Below are positions 3,820 to 41,700 of a stretch of 64,000 bases of DNA, in pieces (positions within the stretch are counted from its first letter, which is position 1; each line of letters starts with the position of its first letter). This stretch comes from Monosporascus cannonballus (Eukaryota > Ascomycota > Sordariomycetes > Xylariales), in the NCBI GenBank assembly GCA_004154925.1, contig QJNS01000112.1, forward strand, positions 186,001-250,000, given 5' to 3'. The position numbers were made by a program, and so were the translations under genes. The notes beneath the pieces were generated by a model, which saw only the letters and a program-made list of their open reading frames with translations, did no database searches and was not told the origin of the DNA.

Positions 3820-4208
3820 TGTTACGACCCAACCAGCTTCGGCCTTAAGAAACGGTCAAACAAGGATTATACGGACCACCCCATAGGTTACGTGACGATA
3901 ATCACTGCTAAGCCAGTAATTAAAAGTGATTAAAGAAGATCGCAAGCAATTATGATTACTACCAGCTAAATGATCATAAGTAATTAAGCCAAAAAGAAAA
4001 AAGATATATAGTTTTATTATTTCCATAATTTAAATAGTTTTAGCTTGTAATATTTATTAATATCAATTGTTTGCAATACGTTGTAGCACTTGTAATATTA
4101 AAAAACGTGATTAAATTATTCTATTATTACAGAGTTTTACGATATTTCTGTTAATATAAACCCGTACGACTAAAGTTTAATACTTAGTTAAATTTTTAGT
4201 TCGTTATA
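3820..4208 (+). repeat. 5' LTR of the chromovirus
   Basis: 389 bp, starting TGTTACGACC and ending GTTCGTTATA. It aligns along its whole length with 11723-12109. Differences are almost all C/T or G/A, as expected for RIP acting independently on the two copies. Confidence 0.93.
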
Positions 4209-4229
4209 CGTTGCAAATTTTTGTTCAAT

Positions 4230-5200
4230 AGTACCGTCAGACTTTAAGCAATATTCAATACTGTCAAAATATCGACCAGCGTTCAGGAAACCCTTATTCA
4301 ATAACTTTAGGCTCAAATTCGGAAACTGGAAAAAGAAATCCGACAAATTAAGGCTATGCCACTTACCTAAGCCTTTTTCGCCTACATAAAGCTTAAAAAA
4401 CTAAAGCCTTATAATAAAAAAGGTAACCTTTAAATCTTTTTAACTTAGGTACAAGTTTATTTTTGTTTTTTAAACGTTAATAATCCAATAAATCAGGTTC
4501 TAATAATAGGAATATGCCTAACGAAAAATACGGCGGATTAGTTTGAACCTCTTATAAAAAATTTTCTGAAAATGGGAAAATCGAATAAAAAGGATTTTAC
4601 TAATAAGATTTTTTCATTTTATACCAATTTCGAAAATAAAATACGCGATAATTTCGACAATCCGGATAAAAAACTATTTACGATTTAATAACTTTTATAA
4701 TTTCGACAAAAAGGACCCGCGTTTAAGTACGCCGTAATTTTTAAAAGTTTTGCAATTAAAGCAGGATAAAAAAATAATAAAGTTAATATTTTTATCGGCA
4801 TATTCTATAAAAGATTAAAGGATAATATAAAAAAAATTATTCGGATTAAGCAATTAGTTGTCTTAGACCGGTATATTGTAAAAGTAATTAAAATCGATAA
4901 TCGACAGTTTGAAAAACGATAAAAAAAAGATAATATGCTTTACGTTCGAGATATAACAAATTTAACTAGGAGAAAAAACGAGACATATTTTTTATTTTTT
5001 ACGGAACGGCGCTAGGACTTATAGAATTTGGCGTTACTTATAAACAAAACTAAAGCTAGATTAAATGCTTTAATTGTGGCAAAATGGGATATAAGACCTA
5101 TAAGTATAGGAAACCCAAAAAGCCATAACAAGATAACTAAACCTTTATACTGGAAGAACAGTCCAGGAATAACTAAGAAAATAACAATAAAGCTATTAAC
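4230..5200 (+). pseudogene. Gag remnant with CCHC zinc knuckle (chromovirus)
   Basis: Interrupted Gag reading region downstream of the 5' LTR. At 5066-5107 a CX2CX4HX4C zinc knuckle can be read in one frame (CFNCGKMG followed by tat-K-T-Y-K-tat). The first two cysteines survive, but the histidine and last cysteine positions are now tat (Tyr). These are the changes expected from CAT to TAT (C to T) and TGT to TAT (G to A). The nucleic-acid-binding end of Gag is therefore identified; upstream capsid sequence is too damaged to describe. Non-functional. Confidence 0.8.
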
Positions 5201-7006
5201 ATAATTTAAGCCAAATATATATTAGGCCTATGGCAAAAGGTTTAATAAGGACCATTACGATAAGAAATTCGACGAAAAATACGAAAAACCAGAAAGCTGG
5301 CTCGATAAATATCGCGAACATAACAAAAAGCATTATAAAAATAATTACGCGAATATTAAAACTGGATAAAAAAATCTGTCCCGAAACCCCTAATCGATAC
5401 GGCAAAATGCATATTATATATTATTAATAACGAAAATATCCCGATTACGAAAACTAGAAATAATATATTTATAAACAAATTACCCGTATATATTATAAAA
5501 ATTTAATTTTTCAAATAGTATCGAAAATAACAAAAACGATAAATAATGGTATCGATAACTTCGAACCATAACCCCAAAAGATATTCAATAATTGGCTAAG
5601 GCAAAAAGCTGGCCCGAAAAAAAGCAATATCCGCAAAAAAAAGTTTTTTGTCACTATAAATAATATAACCACTAAACGGAAAAAAGTTGATTTAGCATAT
5701 AATGGAAAAAATACTGCCAAAAAGTTATTACGAACCTTTATTTTCAGTTAGTATTTATTACAAATCTTTATAAAAAGATTATTAAGAAAAAAATATATTA
5801 GTTTACAAACAATCTTTAAAACAATAATTAACACGATATATAATGGAATATAGTTGTAAATATAAGAAAACAATTTATTCGATAAGGAAAAAAATTATAA
5901 CAAAACTAAAAATAGCTAATATAATTCGAAAGAACAGTATGCTGACAATAACGACAAATATAATAACTTAATGCGCTAAACGAAAAAATACAAAAAAGCT
6001 TAATAAATTCGAATAGGAAGTAAAAGAAAAAAGTTACTTATAAAAAAGCCGCAAAATAACAAAACTTAAAGGAATTAAGAAAAATTCTCAAAAAAGGTTT
6101 TAAACGCGACAATAAAAAACGTTAACGATTTTATTATTTTAGATATACAAATCGGAACGGATTAATATACCGCAATAATAAATTATAAAACTTTAAGCGG
6201 GAATTATATTATACCAGATATGGTTAATAAGCCTAAATTGCTTTAAAAATATAAATTAAAACTTTATATAGCAATAAATGTCGAAAATTAGAAATTTGCT
6301 TATGATAACGAAAAAATTATACGCGAAATTAATTATCTCGAGATTTTTATCAAAAAACAATATTAAATAATTAATTTTAATATTGTTTTATTTAGAAATT
6401 ACGATATAATTTTAAGATTACTATGGATACGCTAGTACGGAGTTTTAATTAACGAAAAAACTGGCTAGATAAAATTTGCTTTATTTTTTATTAATAAATA
6501 AAAAAGAGAAATTAAGATTTTAATACTTAATCGATAATAGCGATAAGAATAGGTATAAGGATACGACAAAAACCTTATTACCTAAAAGAATAAAATACAA
6601 AAAAGAAAACAGACATTAAAGAAAAATACAATATATTATTGTTGTTATTAAAGCAAAATTAAAGTAACTAAATAACGCTTTAAAATAACAAAAACAATAG
6701 CTTTAAAAATTAAAAGATTTAACTAATATATTACTATAATATTATAAATATAAATAATTTTTTAGGAAAGAACTTAATATGAAGCTATCAAAATATAACG
6801 AATAAGATTACGAAATAATTTTTAAAGAAAAATTTTCGATAAAGTTTTACCCTATTAACAATTTCAGCGGAAGCGAATTACGTATTTTCAAAAAATATCT
6901 AAAAAATCGGCTATAAAAATGGATTTAACTTTCGAAATTACCAGCAAAATACCTTATATTCTTCGTACTTAAAAAGAATAAAAAATTACGATTTATAATT
7001 AATTAT

Positions 7007-7171
7007 TGTCACGGGCCAAGGACCCTAGTAGAAGGATTAGCGTAGCGCTAATCCCGTGGCTCCTGTATATATAGCTAGCTGCTCCCACGTATCTTTTTAG
7101 CTGTTCCCTAAATTTCTCAATAGATCTGTTATAGCCCATATCCTTAGTTATTGCATATGCAGCCCCTTACA
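7007..7171 (+). repeat. Left LTR of the nested mini-element
   Basis: 165 bp, less RIP-damaged than its surroundings. It contains a perfect 9-bp inverted repeat (GGATTAGCG / CGCTAATCC) around a 3-nt loop at about 7040-7060, followed by a TATATA motif, which could be hairpin and promoter elements. Confidence 0.9.
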
Positions 7172-7879
7172 TATTAAGAAATCTCCTTTTTCGCGAACGG
7201 TCTGTCGCCGTAAAAAGTACGCCAGCATTACGTACCCGTTATTCGTATATAGCTTATTCGTTATGAATACCGAAAAACTATGCTGTCAGGTTTTACGAAC
7301 CGTTTGCGAATTATAAGGCCGTAAAAACTATAACGCCTAGAGGTTCGAAATAAATAAGAAGTTATTCGTTAATAAAAAGGCGATCGGCGATAATCGTACG
7401 CAATTTTTTTATATCTAGGGAACTTTTAGCCATTAGTTTTAAAAATGGACGTTTTTGCCGTATATACAAAAAGCCTTAAAAAAGCCAAACTTTTAAACTT
7501 TTTTAAATTATATTGCCATTATCTTAAAAAAACCGAATAAAAAATGGAAAATTGGTTAATACTTAACCAAATTACGTTAATATAATATTTAAATAACGTT
7601 CGAATATATTTTTATATTCGAAAATATTTTTTATTAAGCCGGAAAAATCGAATAACCAAATAAAGCCAAAATTTTCTTATTAATTTCGGGCCTTAACGCC
7701 GAAACGAAAAAATAATTGAATTACGAAAGATAATCTAATATTTAAAAAAAGTTTGCGTAATTTTTTCGCCGTTCGAAAATATCGTTTTTAACGGCTTCCA
7801 TTCCGGCGCATTTGCGTATAATAACTTTTTAATCGGAAAACGATATTATAAAAGGTGTAAAAATCGGTATATAAATTGT

Positions 7880-7980
7880 TAATTATTAACGTAAGCGTCG
7901 TTGGCGAACGGAGGGACCTTATTTAAAGTATAGCGAAACGGGGCATTTTCGGAAGAATTATCCTAAAGGAAAAAAAATCG
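7880..7980 (+). pseudogene. Gag zinc-knuckle remnant of the nested element
   Basis: At 7920-7961 one frame reads YLKYSETGHFRKNY, preceded by GP and followed by PKG. It has the spacing of CX2CX4HX4C with the histidine kept. All three cysteine positions are tat (Tyr), the RIP product of TGT. This is the only retroviral domain found between the two 165-bp LTRs and marks the interior as Gag-derived. The rest of the interior has no recognisable domain. Confidence 0.78.
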
Positions 7981-8352
7981 CCGTCCGATATATTAGCGTT
8001 AATAAGGCCTTAAAAGTTCCGTTATTATTTAAATAACAAAAAGCAGCCGTAAAAACGTTCGATAAAACTTGGAAAAATCTAAATAAGTTCGATATTTACG
8101 AAGCGTTAAAAGAATTGCCAAAAAAAATCTTAGAGAAAATAATATAAAAATATAAAGCTGGTAGCGCGTAACGCGTTAAAGACGTACGAGCGTAAAGTAT
8201 GCGACGTAATCTTCCCGTAATTATCGGAAAACCCCTTAGATTAAGATTTGCGAATATCGCCGCCTTGGAATAAGGTCCTTAAAAAAGTGCTGCAAATAAA
8301 CATCTGCTGCGTAACAGAAAAAAACAAGGATTAAATTTAAAGAAAAAGGTTA

Positions 8353-8517
8353 TATTACGGGCTAAGGGCTTTAATGGAAAGATTAGCGTAACGCTAATTC
8401 CGTGGCTCCTATATATATAACTAGCTGCTCCTACGTATTTTCTTAGTTATTCTTTAAATTTCTTAATAGACCTGTTATGGCCCATATCTTTAGCTACTGC
8501 CTATGCAGCCCTTTACA
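8353..8517 (+). repeat. Right LTR of the nested mini-element
   Basis: 165 bp, aligning over its full length with 7007-7171. It differs mainly by C/T and G/A changes, which also spoil two bases of the internal hairpin. It is followed directly by ATTAT (8518-8522), the right target duplication. Confidence 0.9.
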
Positions 8518-11500
8518 ATTATTAACAATTAAACGATATTATTATTAAAAATTAAATATAATTACTTTTAATTACAGAAATAAAAAACCGACTTTACGGA
8601 ACAAAATAGTTTATAATATTCGATTTTAAAAATAAATATAATCTTATTGAAATCAAAAAAGAATACGAATAAAAAACAGTCTTTAAGACGAAATACGGAC
8701 TATTTAAATATTTGGTTATATTAATAAAACTTACGAACGTATTAATAACTTTTTAGCAAATAATTAATTACGTATTACGAAAATATCTCGATATTTTCGT
8801 CGTTTGCTATCTCGATGACATTTTTATATTCTTAAAAACAAATAAAAGTATATGCAAAATACGTTTATAAAATTCTTTAAGTTTTACAGGACGCAAAATT
8901 ACTTATTAACGCAGAAAACAGTTAATTTTATACATAGAAAATAAAATATTTAAAATATATTATTACTCTAGGACATATTAAAATAAACCTTAAGAAAATC
9001 GCTGCAATTACAAAATAGCAAACGCTAACGACGGTTAAGAAGGTATATGTATTTTTTAAATTTACTAATTACTACAGAAAATTTATTCGAAACTTTAGTA
9101 AAATAATTATACCTTTAATAAATCTTACGAAAAAAAAGAAATTTAAATAAACGCCAGATACGGAAAAAATATTTCAAAATATCAAAAATATAATTACCAG
9201 TAAGTTAATACTAATTATGTACGATTTAAACCGTTTCGTTAAATTAAAAACCGATATTTCGAATTACGCGTTAAGGATAATAATCGGATAACGAAATAAT
9301 TAAGGCAAATTATATATTATTGTATTTTTCTCGTATAAATTAAAAAAATAAATTTAATTACAATATCACAAATAAAAAATTTATGGTTATTATTATAACA
9401 TTTTAAGAATTTAATCATTTTTTAAAAAAACTTGTACTAGGTTAAGGTTTATACGAATTATTAAAATTTTACCCGATTTATTACGACTAAAAAGTTTATA
9501 AAACGATAATTTCGTTACGCAGAAAAATTGACGAACTTTAATTTCGTTATTATTTACAAAAAAGGTTTAAAAAACGGCAGAACAAATATTTTAAGTAAGT
9601 AATTAAATTTCGAAAAAAATTGGTTAAAATTAGCTATATAATTTTAATATCATTATAGAAAAATATTTACGCTCGTAATAAATTGCGATAATTCGGGCAA
9701 TATCTTTCGATATACATTAAAAAATCTAATAATATAATAACGGTTTTCTAAAAAACTAAAAAACAAATAAAATACAAATTTTAAAGGAATACTAAAAAGA
9801 TCTAGTACGAGAAATATACGAATATCAGTTATATAGATATCCAAAGACCCATAAAACTTTAAAGCGATTTTAACATATATATTTCGGTCTTAAAATAAAA
9901 TTAACGATATAAAAAATTATACAACAATACGATATTTGCGTTAAAACAAAGGCTTGACGATATAAGCTATACGGAAAATTACAGCTATTATTAGTCGTAA
10001 AATAATTATAATATTTAATTATATTTAATTTTATTACTAAATTTCCTATATAAAAACTTTCAATTACGAAAATATATTACGATAACATTTTCGTAATCCT
10101 CGATCGATTAACGAAATTTTCTTATTTTTTACTGTATTATAAAAATATAAACGCCGAACAGATAATATATATTTTCTTTAAATATACTTTTAATATATAC
10201 GGATTATTAATAAAAATTATTTCAAATAAAAAATTAATATTTATATTTAAATTTTAATAAAGTTTTATAATATAAATCCGCTTAAATTACAAATTATTTA
10301 ACATATTTAAACGCTAAATAAATAAACAAATTAAATAAATAAACTAAACCTTAAAAACTTATTTACGATATTAAATTAATTACGAATAAAATAATTAAGT
10401 TAAAATATTATTTATTATTTAATTAACTTATAATACCAGTTATTACGAAAATATTAAAATAATACCTGCGAACGCAAATTTTGGTTTTATTGCGAAAATT
10501 TACAAAAAAAATGCGTAATAATAATTTAATTAATATCAAAATAATTCTTACGTTAAAATAAATATAATAATTATACCAGAAAATAGAAATAAAATTAAAA
10601 TTCGTACGAAAATAAATAAATAAATATTATAACTAAAAAAATTTAAAAATATTAACTTTTAAAAAAAGGGAAATAATATTTTCGTTACAAAAAATATTTA
10701 AACAAAATAACCTAATAAAAAACTTAATTTCAAATATATCGATCCATACAAAATTATTAAGAAAATTTTAGAAAATAATTTCTAATTAAAAATTTTACCA
10801 AAAATTAAATTCCATTTAATCTTTTATATTTTCTTATTCGAATTAATAACAAACACGATTAAAATATATATAATATTAAATAACATAAACGTAAAAAATA
10901 AACAAATCTACGAAATAGAAAAAATATTCGATATACGAAAACAAAATAGATTTACTCAATACTTAATCAAATGAAAAAAGTACCCAGACTCCGAAAATAC
11001 CTGGAAACTTGTTAAAAACCTTATTGGCGCCTAGCGCCTGTTAAAAAACTTTTACCGGCAACGACAGGCGTATTCCAATTAATAACCGACTAGTTGGTAA
11101 CCGGAATATCGGGCCAATCGGCCGCGACATATGTTAACGTAATAGCCATAACGGCAGTTTCCAATTATTTTTGTTTCCGATGTTCTTATTTCTTTAATTC
11201 GTTTAACGATTAAAATCTACATTATACTATAATAATATCTTTTAAACGAACTAACGCCTTTTATTTACGTAAACAAATAAGATGAAAAAAAGTTTTATTT
11301 ATTTTTTCCTGATGTCGACGTTAAGCTTTAAGGCAAAGCCGTTAAAGCTCTAGCAATCGTTTTTTGACAAATACTTCCTTACGTTTTAAACGTTAATACT
11401 TACGATAAATATTTTGTAAAAAAAAAAAAAATAAGTACGCCGGTACTATTATAAGATCGACTTCGATTAATATATTTCTTACACTTTAAAACGTTTTCTA

Positions 11501-11722
11501 TTATTTTACACCTTATATTTTTTGAAAAATAATAAAAACAAGATATAATTTCGTAACTAAATGCGTTAAAAGCTTTTACGAAATCAGCACGATAAACAGT
11601 AAAAGAACGAAAAACGTAACGAATTTTGGAAATACGAAACGACATAATTAAAAGCAAAAAAGGGGGATATTTACTAAACAAAAAAAAATCTTAAAAGCAA
11701 GATTTTAAAAAAGGAAAAATCG

Positions 11723-12109
11723 TATTACGACCCAACAAACTTCGACTTTAAAAAACGGTTGAACAAAAATCATACAAACCACCCTATAAATTACGTAACG
11801 GTAATTACTGCCAAACCAATAATTAGAAATTATCAAAAAGAATTGCAAACGGTCATAATTATTACCAGCTAAATAATTATAAGTAATTAAGCTAAAAAAA
11901 AAGAATATATACGTTTATTATTCCCATAGTTTAAATAACTTTAGCTTGCAATATTTATTAATACCAATCGTTTGTAATACGTTTCTGCACCTTTAGTATT
12001 AAAAGTCGTAATTAAGTTATTCTATTGCTACAAAGTCCTACGATACTTCTACCAACATAAACCCGTACGACTAAGGTTTAATAGTTGGTTAAACTCCTAG
12101 CTCGTTACA
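11723..12109 (+). repeat. 3' LTR of the chromovirus
   Basis: 387 bp, starting TATTACGACC (TG changed to TA) and ending GCTCGTTACA. It is followed by the target duplication GTAAT at 12110-12114. More cytosines survive here than in the 5' LTR near the right end. Confidence 0.93.
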
Positions 12110-38783: not shown

Positions 38784-41700
38784 TCAGTCGATGTACCTGG
38801 CAGGTTTGCGTCTTCTGCGTGGAGTCACTAGTTCCTCATCGTCGTCGTCGCTCTCGTCTCCGTTGCCGTGGTGTCTGGCGCCGTTGCTGTCCGTCCAGCT
38901 CTCTCCGTTGTATTCGTCGTAGCCAGCGTCGCGCTTCTTCCCGCTCTTCTCGTCCGTGGATTGCGTGTCGTAGTCGGAGATGAGGTACTCCGGTTCCGAC
39001 ATCGGCGTGGAGAGCGGGCTAGACTCCAAGGCCTCCTTGCCCTGACGCCGGTTTCTAGCACGCGATGGTGTGTCTTCTTCGGCTGCCGAGTCGGAATCCG
39101 GCGCGAAGGTGGCCGCCGTATGTCCTAAGCCATCGTTGGCCTCCATACCACTGTTGCGGCCATCAACCACCATCCCTTCCTGAATTACGTCTTGGGGCTC
39201 GTCGTGGTCCTCGAGCCTGCGCGTTTTCCTGCCCCGACGCCTTGGAGTAGCGTCCAGGTCGAGCTCACCCTCTCCACTGGGGCGCTCCGATGACCGGACC
39301 CGTCCAGCGGTCTTTCTAGCTCTCGGAAGTCCCAGACGTCTCTTGCTACGCGGCTTGCCCCGAGAACCGGGGGGATGGGGGGTAATCGATTGAACATCGT
39401 CCTGAGATTCACCGAGATCGGGATGGTACTCCTCTTCATCGGAATCTTCCACGGCATTTCTCCGCTTGCGTTTACGGGGCGCCGGGGCTTCGACTTCGCG
39501 GAAAGGGTCCTCGGAAAGATCCCGGAAGGCCGGGGCCTCTTCCGGCTCTGTTACGACCTTGACGGGTACCTTCGGCTTGGTCTTGCTTCCTTTGGGCCGT
39601 CCCGGCTTACGACCGGGCTTGCGGCCGGGTTTCTTCTTCACCGGCACGAAGCTCTCCTCGAGCTCGTCGGCTTGTTCTTTGGCCTTCCGCCGGCCCCTTC
39701 TAGCCTTTTGTTGGACTTCCCCCTCCTCCAACAGCTTCTTAGTCAGGTTTGGAAAGTTTTCGCCGTAGTTGAAAAATAGCTCTTCTCCTGCCTTGATGTC
39801 CCGCAGAGAAGAAAACTTGATACGGTACTCGCCATTTACGTAGAGGATCCTAGGCGTGACGTTGCAGTTCGAATCCTGGTGGTTAATATAGCGGCTAAGG
39901 TTGCCGTAAATAGCCGCGTCAACCCAGGTGCCTTCCTGTTCTAGTAGGGTAAAGAGGTAAGACGTATTCGAACTCTCATCAAAAACGTCGCCTCGGCGCG
40001 CCTCGCGGCGGACTCCTTCGTCGTGGCTTATGAGCTCGCCGACGTACTCGATGACGAACTCGTCCTGGGCGATATCCTCGGTCGTGAAGAGCCCGTACCC
40101 GGCCACCTTCGACTTCCCCAGAACCACCGACTTCGACTTTCCCCGCTGCAGGGCGCAGTTCTGGCATCCGGTCGCGTGCAGAAGCTCGTCGTCCGCGTAC
40201 GACGGATTCGCCCTCTCAAGGGCCCCGCAGCTCCCGCACAAGACCGGGTCGCATTCTCGGTTCAGCTGCACGCAGATGCAAGGCCTGTCTTTCTGCTTAG
40301 ATATGCAGGTCTTCCCCTGCGAGTGACAGGCGCATCCCGTGAACTTGTAGGCGCAGCAGGCCGCGGTGCAGCGGCAGAATCGCTCACACAGAAGTTTGTT
40401 CTGGACGCAGGGACAATTCTCGGGCGTACAGGGTCCTTCGTGGTTACACGGGTCGAAACGCTCTTTTCGCTGATGCTCGTGTGTGTCCGTCTGATCTTGC
40501 CAGTCGTTAAGGAGCATTTTCTTGTGCCGATCATACCAAGGCAGGCTCTTGACCTTGTGCGCCGGCGGGGAGGCCGGACTCGCAGGCGGCTCCAGATTGA
40601 GCTTGTCGAGCTGGCGGTTGACGTCCCAGCAGGGCCTACCAGTGGTTAGAGCGGCGGTGCACTGGACGGGGATGCTCGTGTTATTAAGGGTCATGAAATG
40701 TGATTTGAGGATCATGATCTCGGTTTCGCTCCATGCGCGTGCTCGCGTCCCCGGCCGCCCGTTCAGGTAGCAGTCCTCACCACAAGGCTTTCTATCGACC
40801 GGTCCCTTTGGTTTCTGGTTTGCCCGCTTGCGGAGCATTGGCGATAGCCCGCCGATAAGCTCGACAGAAAACCGCTTTCTTTCGTTGTCGAAACCGTATT
40901 CTCCATGCTCACAGCTCGATCCCGTGCAAATCAGGCAGCCGAGGGCAGCGTATGTCTCCAGGAAAGACTCCACCGTCATATGCTCGTCTGTTGTTTTGGC
41001 CTGACTGGGAGTTTCTTTCATCCACTTCTTCGAGTCAACGATGTTGTCCACCGTGCCGTCCAGTAGGAGAACCTCGCGAAGTGGTACCGCGTGGTCTCCC
41101 AACAAGGGGTTATTGAAGACCCGGTCGAAGGCTTCGGTGAACATCCTAACGGCCTTCGCCGATCTCGGGGAACCCGCGTCGTCGTTGTAAGAATTCAGGA
41201 TGCTGGATTTCTGCTGCGGCGTTACCGTATCCGTATGGCTGGCCATATGTCGAATGAGGGTCGATTTGGTGCAGTTCTCGACGCCGAGCTGGTTTAGCCA
41301 ACGGTCGAGGTACAATAGCAGGACCGTCGCGCGTTCTTTCTGGATCGTCTTGACCACCTTCTGGTGTCTACTGAGAGTGGCAAACCCGGACGTCTTGTCC
41401 ATGTTTTCCAGGTTCTCAAGCCAACGACGATACTTCACCTCCTCGTTATCCGCAAGATCGCGCAGATGGGGCACGTACGTCAGCATGGTGTTAGGAGACA
41501 GTATATTCTTGCTGATCTCGACGTGGTGGAAGGCATAGTGTGGGGCAGGCTCTTGCTTGGTCTCAATGCAAATTACCGGGTAGTGTTCCCGCCTTTCCTG
41601 CTTCCCGGACCTGCCCTGGCCTACTTGCTGAAGCCGAGTCAGTCAGTCATTTCTTTGATATATCCGGGATCTTCTTGGGGAACAAACTTTGGTCTTGATT

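What the first reader, a model, noticed from the sequence alone, without database searches (positions are those of the whole stretch)
7007..8517. Gag-only mini LTR retrotransposon nested in a chromovirus
Seen: 165-bp direct LTRs, perfect ATTAT duplications, a purine run before the right LTR, and a 1.18-kb interior whose only recognisable domain is a CX2CX4HX4C Gag knuckle (cysteines turned to Tyr). Known: non-autonomous LTR elements with a Gag region and no Pol (TR-GAG type) have been described mainly in plants. Inference: this is a fungal counterpart that borrowed Pol from a relative, perhaps an undescribed family.
Basis: partly seen in the sequence, partly recalled or inferred. Interest (0 to 1): 0.8.

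Follow-up and report, generated by a model that had tools for sequence, protein, structure and literature searches.

The report
Fungal gag-only mini LTR retrotransposon family
A 1.5-kb parasite-like jumping element, present in about ninety mutated copies in a fungal genome, carries what looks like a shell-protein gene but no copying enzymes of its own, and seems to prime its own copying by folding back its RNA.

Summary
7007-8517 is a complete 1,511-bp LTR element (165-bp LTRs, perfect ATTAT duplication, purine tract, 1,181-bp interior) inserted in the reverse-transcriptase region of a decayed chromovirus.

It is no one-off deletion. The genome holds 93 pattern-defined 5' ends; 79 of these have a 3' end at the spacing of this element. 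The 31 copies examined end to end share one architecture (interior 1,176-1,189 bp); 21 have perfect 5-bp duplications, and solo LTRs with duplications are common. All are scarred by RIP-like transitions.

The 13 bases after the 5' LTR are complementary to LTR positions ~104-116: exact in 15 of 31 copies, off only by transitions in 29 of 31. That is the Tf1/sushi self-priming layout.

The Gag reading is plausible but weak: a 284-codon frame with ATG and knuckle-like motif, and a sub-threshold Retrotrans_gag match in 1 of 10 copies; a RIP-proof codon-periodicity test was not significant.

No element with the same LTRs and a pol gene was seen, though a few copies stay unresolved, so trans-mobilisation is inferred. 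Best filed as a new non-autonomous, TR-GAG-like family from a diatrypaceous ascomycete.

The parts
7002..7006 (+). left target-site duplication ATTAT
   Evidence: perfect 5-bp duplications in 21 of 31 full copies
7007..7171 (+). 5' LTR, 165 bp, TG...CA
7066..7073 (+). TATATATA, possible TATA box 44 nt upstream of the self-primer site
   Evidence: promoter function inferred
7110..7122 (+). LTR copy of the self-primer, inferred 5' end of the transcript (start of R)
   Evidence: complementary to 7172-7184; transition-only differences in 29 of 31 copies, 12 of 13 in the other 2; 11 or more exact bases in 18 of 31 against 5 of 3,100 shuffles
7172..7184 (+). self-primer binding site directly after the 5' LTR
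   Evidence: does not begin with the TGG expected for the 3' end of a tRNA (recalled rule)
7257..8108 (+). Gag-like frame (ATG at 7263 in this copy), 284 codons, 19 stops here
   Evidence: frame free of indels in 10 of 31 copies; Retrotrans_gag E=0.023, 15.4 bits against a cut-off of 24.1, in 1 of 10 copies
7920..7961 (+). CCHC-knuckle-like motif, Cys read as Tyr
8339..8349 (+). polypurine tract, 3 nt before the 3' LTR
8353..8517 (+). 3' LTR, 165 bp
8518..8522 (+). right target-site duplication ATTAT
3820..12109 (+). host chromovirus (LTRs about 3820-4208 and 11723-12109, duplication GTAAT), target of the insertion
   Evidence: flanks joined over 180 nt keep one RT-like frame across the insertion (by eye)

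Best explanation
A non-autonomous LTR retrotransposon family of TR-GAG type. Shown: one 1.5-kb unit with LTRs, purine tract, 5-bp target duplications, solo LTRs, many copies of constant length and no recognisable pol. Inferred: the LTR promoter makes an RNA that starts near LTR position 104; its first ~13 bases fold back onto the site just after the 5' LTR and, as in Tf1/sushi elements, prime reverse transcription; the RNA is packaged with the help of its own or a donor's Gag and is copied and integrated by the enzymes of a chromovirus-like Ty3 element acting in trans. RIP later inactivated every copy seen.
For: Architecture and copies: 40 scored BLAST hits, 39 of them 1,504-1,519 bp; 31 distinct copies with LTR 165-167 and interior 1,176-1,189 bp; 93 5' ends, 79 with a 3' end at the mini spacing (one search gives 71; eight more read); 15 of 29 other LTR loci are solo LTRs, 14 of 15 with a 5-bp duplication. 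Replication by reverse transcription follows from this anatomy. Self-priming: 13-nt complementarity. Purine tract in 30 of 31. No pol: three frames of the window copy match no Pfam family. Gag: with no match in 10 other-frame controls. RIP: (CA+TG)/(AC+GT) 0.42-0.62 in 16 copies; LTR pairs of 31 copies differ by 657 transitions and 27 transversions (summed by hand); C before A or T mutated in 0.72 and 0.67 of cases against 0.10-0.12 before C or G.
Against: No Pol donor identified. Gag match below the curated cut-off and in 1 of 10 copies; no match in the protein database or the PDB set; fold model useless, pLDDT 28.6; RIP-proof codon periodicity not significant, p about 0.3; near-fixed stops in the frame. 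Seven of 31 copies have no 5-bp duplication within 3 nt. Transcript start not measured.
Confidence: 0.7

Rival explanations
1. Deletion derivative: the family descends from an ordinary chromovirus with the same LTRs by loss of pol, and the parent still exists or has been lost.
For: Retained gag-like frame at the expected place; non-autonomous families commonly arise so (recalled). Six of the 14 5' ends without a mini-spaced 3' end are unresolved.
Against: 79 of 93 5' ends have the mini spacing. In long copies the extra DNA looks nested: the mini's Gag resumes after the insert at C61, C114 and C511, another LTR starts inside C511, and the insert at C277 has its RT on the opposite strand. A Gag search of the genome returned only this family among 137 scored of 197 candidates (judged by place and score).
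Confidence: 0.35
2. A TRIM-like element: the interior is non-coding packaging sequence and the gag resemblance is vestigial or chance.
For: Pfam match below cut-off; no database match; codon periodicity not significant; no clear excess of stops in the other frames. Under Inpactor's rule an element under 2,000 bases without a domain is a TRIM (PMC6022998, passages).
Against: The sub-threshold match is to the predicted family, in register and upstream of a knuckle-like motif in the same frame; other frames gave none. The interior is long for a TRIM (recalled 100-300 bp).
Confidence: 0.25
3. A chance arrangement or assembly artefact at this one locus.
For: None found.
Against: Dozens of independent full-length copies at different target sites.
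Confidence: 0.01

Closest known systems
TR-GAG elements of plants (Chaparro et al. 2015, recalled; definition seen in passages of PMC6022998 and PMC10552921)
   Same: LTRs, purine tract, multi-copy, no RT, RNase H or integrase, a Gag-like frame
   Different: in a fungus; self-complementary primer site; Gag only weakly recognisable; donor not found
Tf1/sushi-type self-priming Ty3/Gypsy elements (passages of PMC7175516 and PMC2864245)
   Same: primer site directly after the 5' LTR complementary to the inferred 5' end of the RNA (Tf1: first 11 bases); 5-bp duplication
   Different: no pol; 1.5 kb instead of a full-length autonomous element
TRIM elements, reported in fungi such as Coniophora/Boletales and Cochliobolus (passages of PMC5689174 and PMC4112212)
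   Same: short LTR pair, small size, non-autonomous
   Different: 1.18-kb interior with a Gag-like frame

Membership tests
TR-GAG | pair of LTRs with target duplication | tested here: met
TR-GAG | no RT, RNase H or integrase between the LTRs | tested here: met
   window copy, three frames, 0 Pfam families; interior length constant in 31 copies
TR-GAG | Gag domain recognisable | tested here: inconclusive
   Retrotrans_gag 15.4 bits against a cut-off of 24.1, E=0.023, in 1 of 10 copies; 0 of 16 for a shorter piece
TR-GAG | amplified by Pol of another element | not testable with these tools
   no donor found; trans-mobilisation inferred
Tf1/sushi self-priming elements | primer site complementary to a stretch of the LTR | tested here: met
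Tf1/sushi self-priming elements | transcript starts at that stretch | not testable with these tools
   no RNA data
Tf1/sushi self-priming elements | Ty3-type pol | tested here: not met
   no pol: it primes like one but is not an autonomous member
TRIM | under 2 kb and no coding domain | tested here: inconclusive
   1,511 bp; Gag sub-threshold
Deletion derivative of a known chromovirus | autonomous copy with the same LTRs | tested here: inconclusive
   none seen; 79 of 93 are mini-spaced; 6 loci unresolved

The most novel reading that the evidence does not exclude
A fungal gag-bearing non-autonomous LTR family whose self-priming frees it from sharing a tRNA primer site with a donor, so that it could use the Pol of several chromoviruses and outlive any one of them.
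Probability: 0.3. Interest if true: 0.6.

Novelty: new member of a known kind. Interest (0 to 1): 0.4.

Why it matters
TR-GAG elements are discussed for plants in the 12 papers listed for that name. A fungal family would show that the gag-only strategy is not a plant peculiarity. The built-in primer makes a clear prediction: the element does not need to match its donor at the primer site, only at packaging and LTR ends. It is also a clean natural record of RIP on a short repeat.

Tried and rejected
Tried without result: Pfam on three typed pieces of the interior, on a 166-codon piece in 16 copies and on three frames of the window copy; protein-database searches with two alignments; PDB sequences; an AlphaFold model (pLDDT 28.6, not searched further). 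Stop-pattern test and purine/pyrimidine periodicity did not single out a coding frame clearly: in 7173+ frame 1 has the fewest stop-capable triplets (29 against 43 and 32) and most RNY codons (79 against 67 and 61) in the gag region, but periodicity p was 1,529 of 5,000 shuffles.

Rejected: the C613 junction as a partner, a chance match in GC-rich DNA without LTRs; the C511 8-kb copy as autonomous, a mini with another LTR element nested 98 bp into the interior; the C277 8-kb copy, whose insert carries an RT on the opposite strand. A self-primer for the host chromovirus was looked at (12 nt in one LTR, 7 in the other) and left open.

Literature: searches; passages read in PMC6022998, PMC2864245, PMC5689174, PMC12210899, PMC7175516, PMC5872316, PMC3248453, PMC4112212 and PMC10552921. 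The TR-GAG founding paper is not held and is recalled. No fungal TR-GAG was found in these searches; most subscription papers are not in the library.

Full report
What is there. The window copy is a complete small LTR element, 7007-8517: two 165-bp LTRs (137 of 165 identical, 27 of 28 differences transitions), ATTAT on both sides, an 11-base purine run ending three bases before the 3' LTR and a 1,181-bp interior. It sits in a decayed chromovirus, about 3820-12109, with RNase H and chromodomain matches and its own GTAAT duplication. Joining 90 bases from each side with one ATTAT removed gives one frame, read by eye as reverse transcriptase, running across the site.

A family, not an accident. 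BLAST of the whole unit against its own genome (88.8 Mb, 618 contigs) scored 40 of 159 candidates; 39 rows are 1,504-1,519 bp long and one is cut short. Four place searches give 5' ends: the LTR-interior junction, 72 hits, control 0, of which one, C613, is chance; the interior start, 86 hits, control 1; a transition-tolerant junction, 75 hits, control 0, which added C381. The set used has 93 ends. For 71 the 3' end lies at the spacing of this element (36, 35), and eight more were paired by eye, giving 79 of 93. Three further full rows (C7, C35, C99) were not caught by the 5' patterns.

Copies examined end to end. I held 36 loci with full or nearly full copies; one lacked a 3' LTR and four were duplicates, leaving 31. 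LTRs are 165-167 bp and interiors 1,176-1,189 bp. Perfect 5-bp duplications at the exact ends occur in 21 of 31, in 24 if ends may shift by up to 3 nt, and in none for the other seven. Of 29 other LTR loci fetched from 40 scored hits, 15 are solo LTRs and 14 belong to mini elements; 14 of the 15 solo LTRs have a 5-bp duplication. Two loci look like tandem LTR-interior-LTR-interior arrays (C111; C256). This is the footprint of retrotransposition followed by recombination.

Mutational state. LTR pairs of the 31 copies differ by 657 transitions and 27 transversions (summed by hand). In 1,183 interior columns, 323 are A/G and 280 C/T variable, against 28 that mix purines and pyrimidines, counting bases seen in two or more copies. 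C is mutated in 0.72 of cases before A and 0.67 before T, but 0.10-0.12 before C or G. In 16 copies tested the TA/AT ratio is 1.18-1.40 and (CA+TG)/(AC+GT) 0.42-0.62. This is what RIP does (recalled), here acting before A and T alike.

Primer site. The base after the 5' LTR begins TAT in 31 of 31 copies, not the TGG expected for a tRNA 3' end (recalled rule). The first 13 bases are complementary to LTR positions 104-116 or so. With either LTR, 15 of 31 copies match over 13 exact bases and 18 over 11 or more, against 5 of 3,100 dinucleotide shuffles. Scored as purine/pyrimidine, which RIP cannot change, 29 of 31 match over all 13 bases and the other two over 12. In the window copy the pair is 7110-7122 and 7172-7184 with two transitions, one against the 3' LTR. 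Tf1 works like this: the first 11 bases of its RNA pair with the primer site (PMC7175516, passages). A TATATATA lies 44 bases upstream of the inferred start. So it primes like Tf1; whether transcripts start there was not measured.

Is the interior Gag? One frame (7257-8108, ATG at 7263) is free of indels in 10 of 31 copies and holds the knuckle-like motif. One of 10 such copies matches Pfam Retrotrans_gag over residues 93-147, E 0.023, 15.4 bits, below the 24.1 cut-off; ten readings in other frames match nothing. The E-value is for 24,736 families while this family had been predicted, so I take it as real but weak. Against: no match for 16 copies of a shorter piece, none in proteins or PDB, a useless fold model, no significant codon periodicity, and stops fixed in all 31 copies at five places of that frame over the whole interior. 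The resemblance of the frame to Ty3 capsid and to a Gag tail is my reading by eye.

Partner. A Gag search of the genome returned 138 matches, 137 of 197 candidates being scored, the weakest apart from one fragment at E 5.8e-28; I read all as this family by place and score. Of the 14 5' ends without a mini-spaced 3' end, four are near-size variants (C22, C39, C322:299489, C333:648593; spacing 1.1-2.7 kb); C61, C114 and C511 have the mini's Gag resuming after the insert and C511 shows a foreign LTR start; C277 has its Gag complete and then an insert with an RT on the opposite strand. C142, C444 and C577 have long inserts that I could not read, and C602, C611 and C128 have no 3' end in the lists. 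The RT list used scored 150 of 2,353 candidates, so absence there proves little. No pol-bearing element with these ends was seen; it is not fully excluded.

Organism. The window gene at 38784-41486 is closest among named hits to Diatrype stigma, 74% identity, family Diatrypaceae, Xylariales. The genus is not known.

Verdict. Real, replicative, non-autonomous and self-priming by layout; probably gag-bearing; donor unknown. It works like a TR-GAG element, but membership rests on a Gag match below the curated cut-off. New family, known kind.

Noticed in passing
3820-12109: RIP-degraded chromovirus with chromodomain and RNase H, LTRs about 79% identical, duplication GTAAT; target of the mini element
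   Followed up: partly
L090 (C511) and C61, C114, C277 in the genome: Mini copies that carry insertions of several kb of other retroelements
   Followed up: partly
C111:64325-67042 and C256:116385-118933: Tandem LTR-interior-LTR-interior arrays, probably products of recombination between copies
   Followed up: partly
L001-L088, 31 copies: RIP-like mutation is as strong before T (0.67) as before A (0.72), whereas classical RIP prefers CpA (recalled)
   Followed up: no
window 4209-4250 and host LTRs: Host chromovirus may also have a self-complementary primer site (12 nt with its 3' LTR); not tested against chance
   Followed up: no
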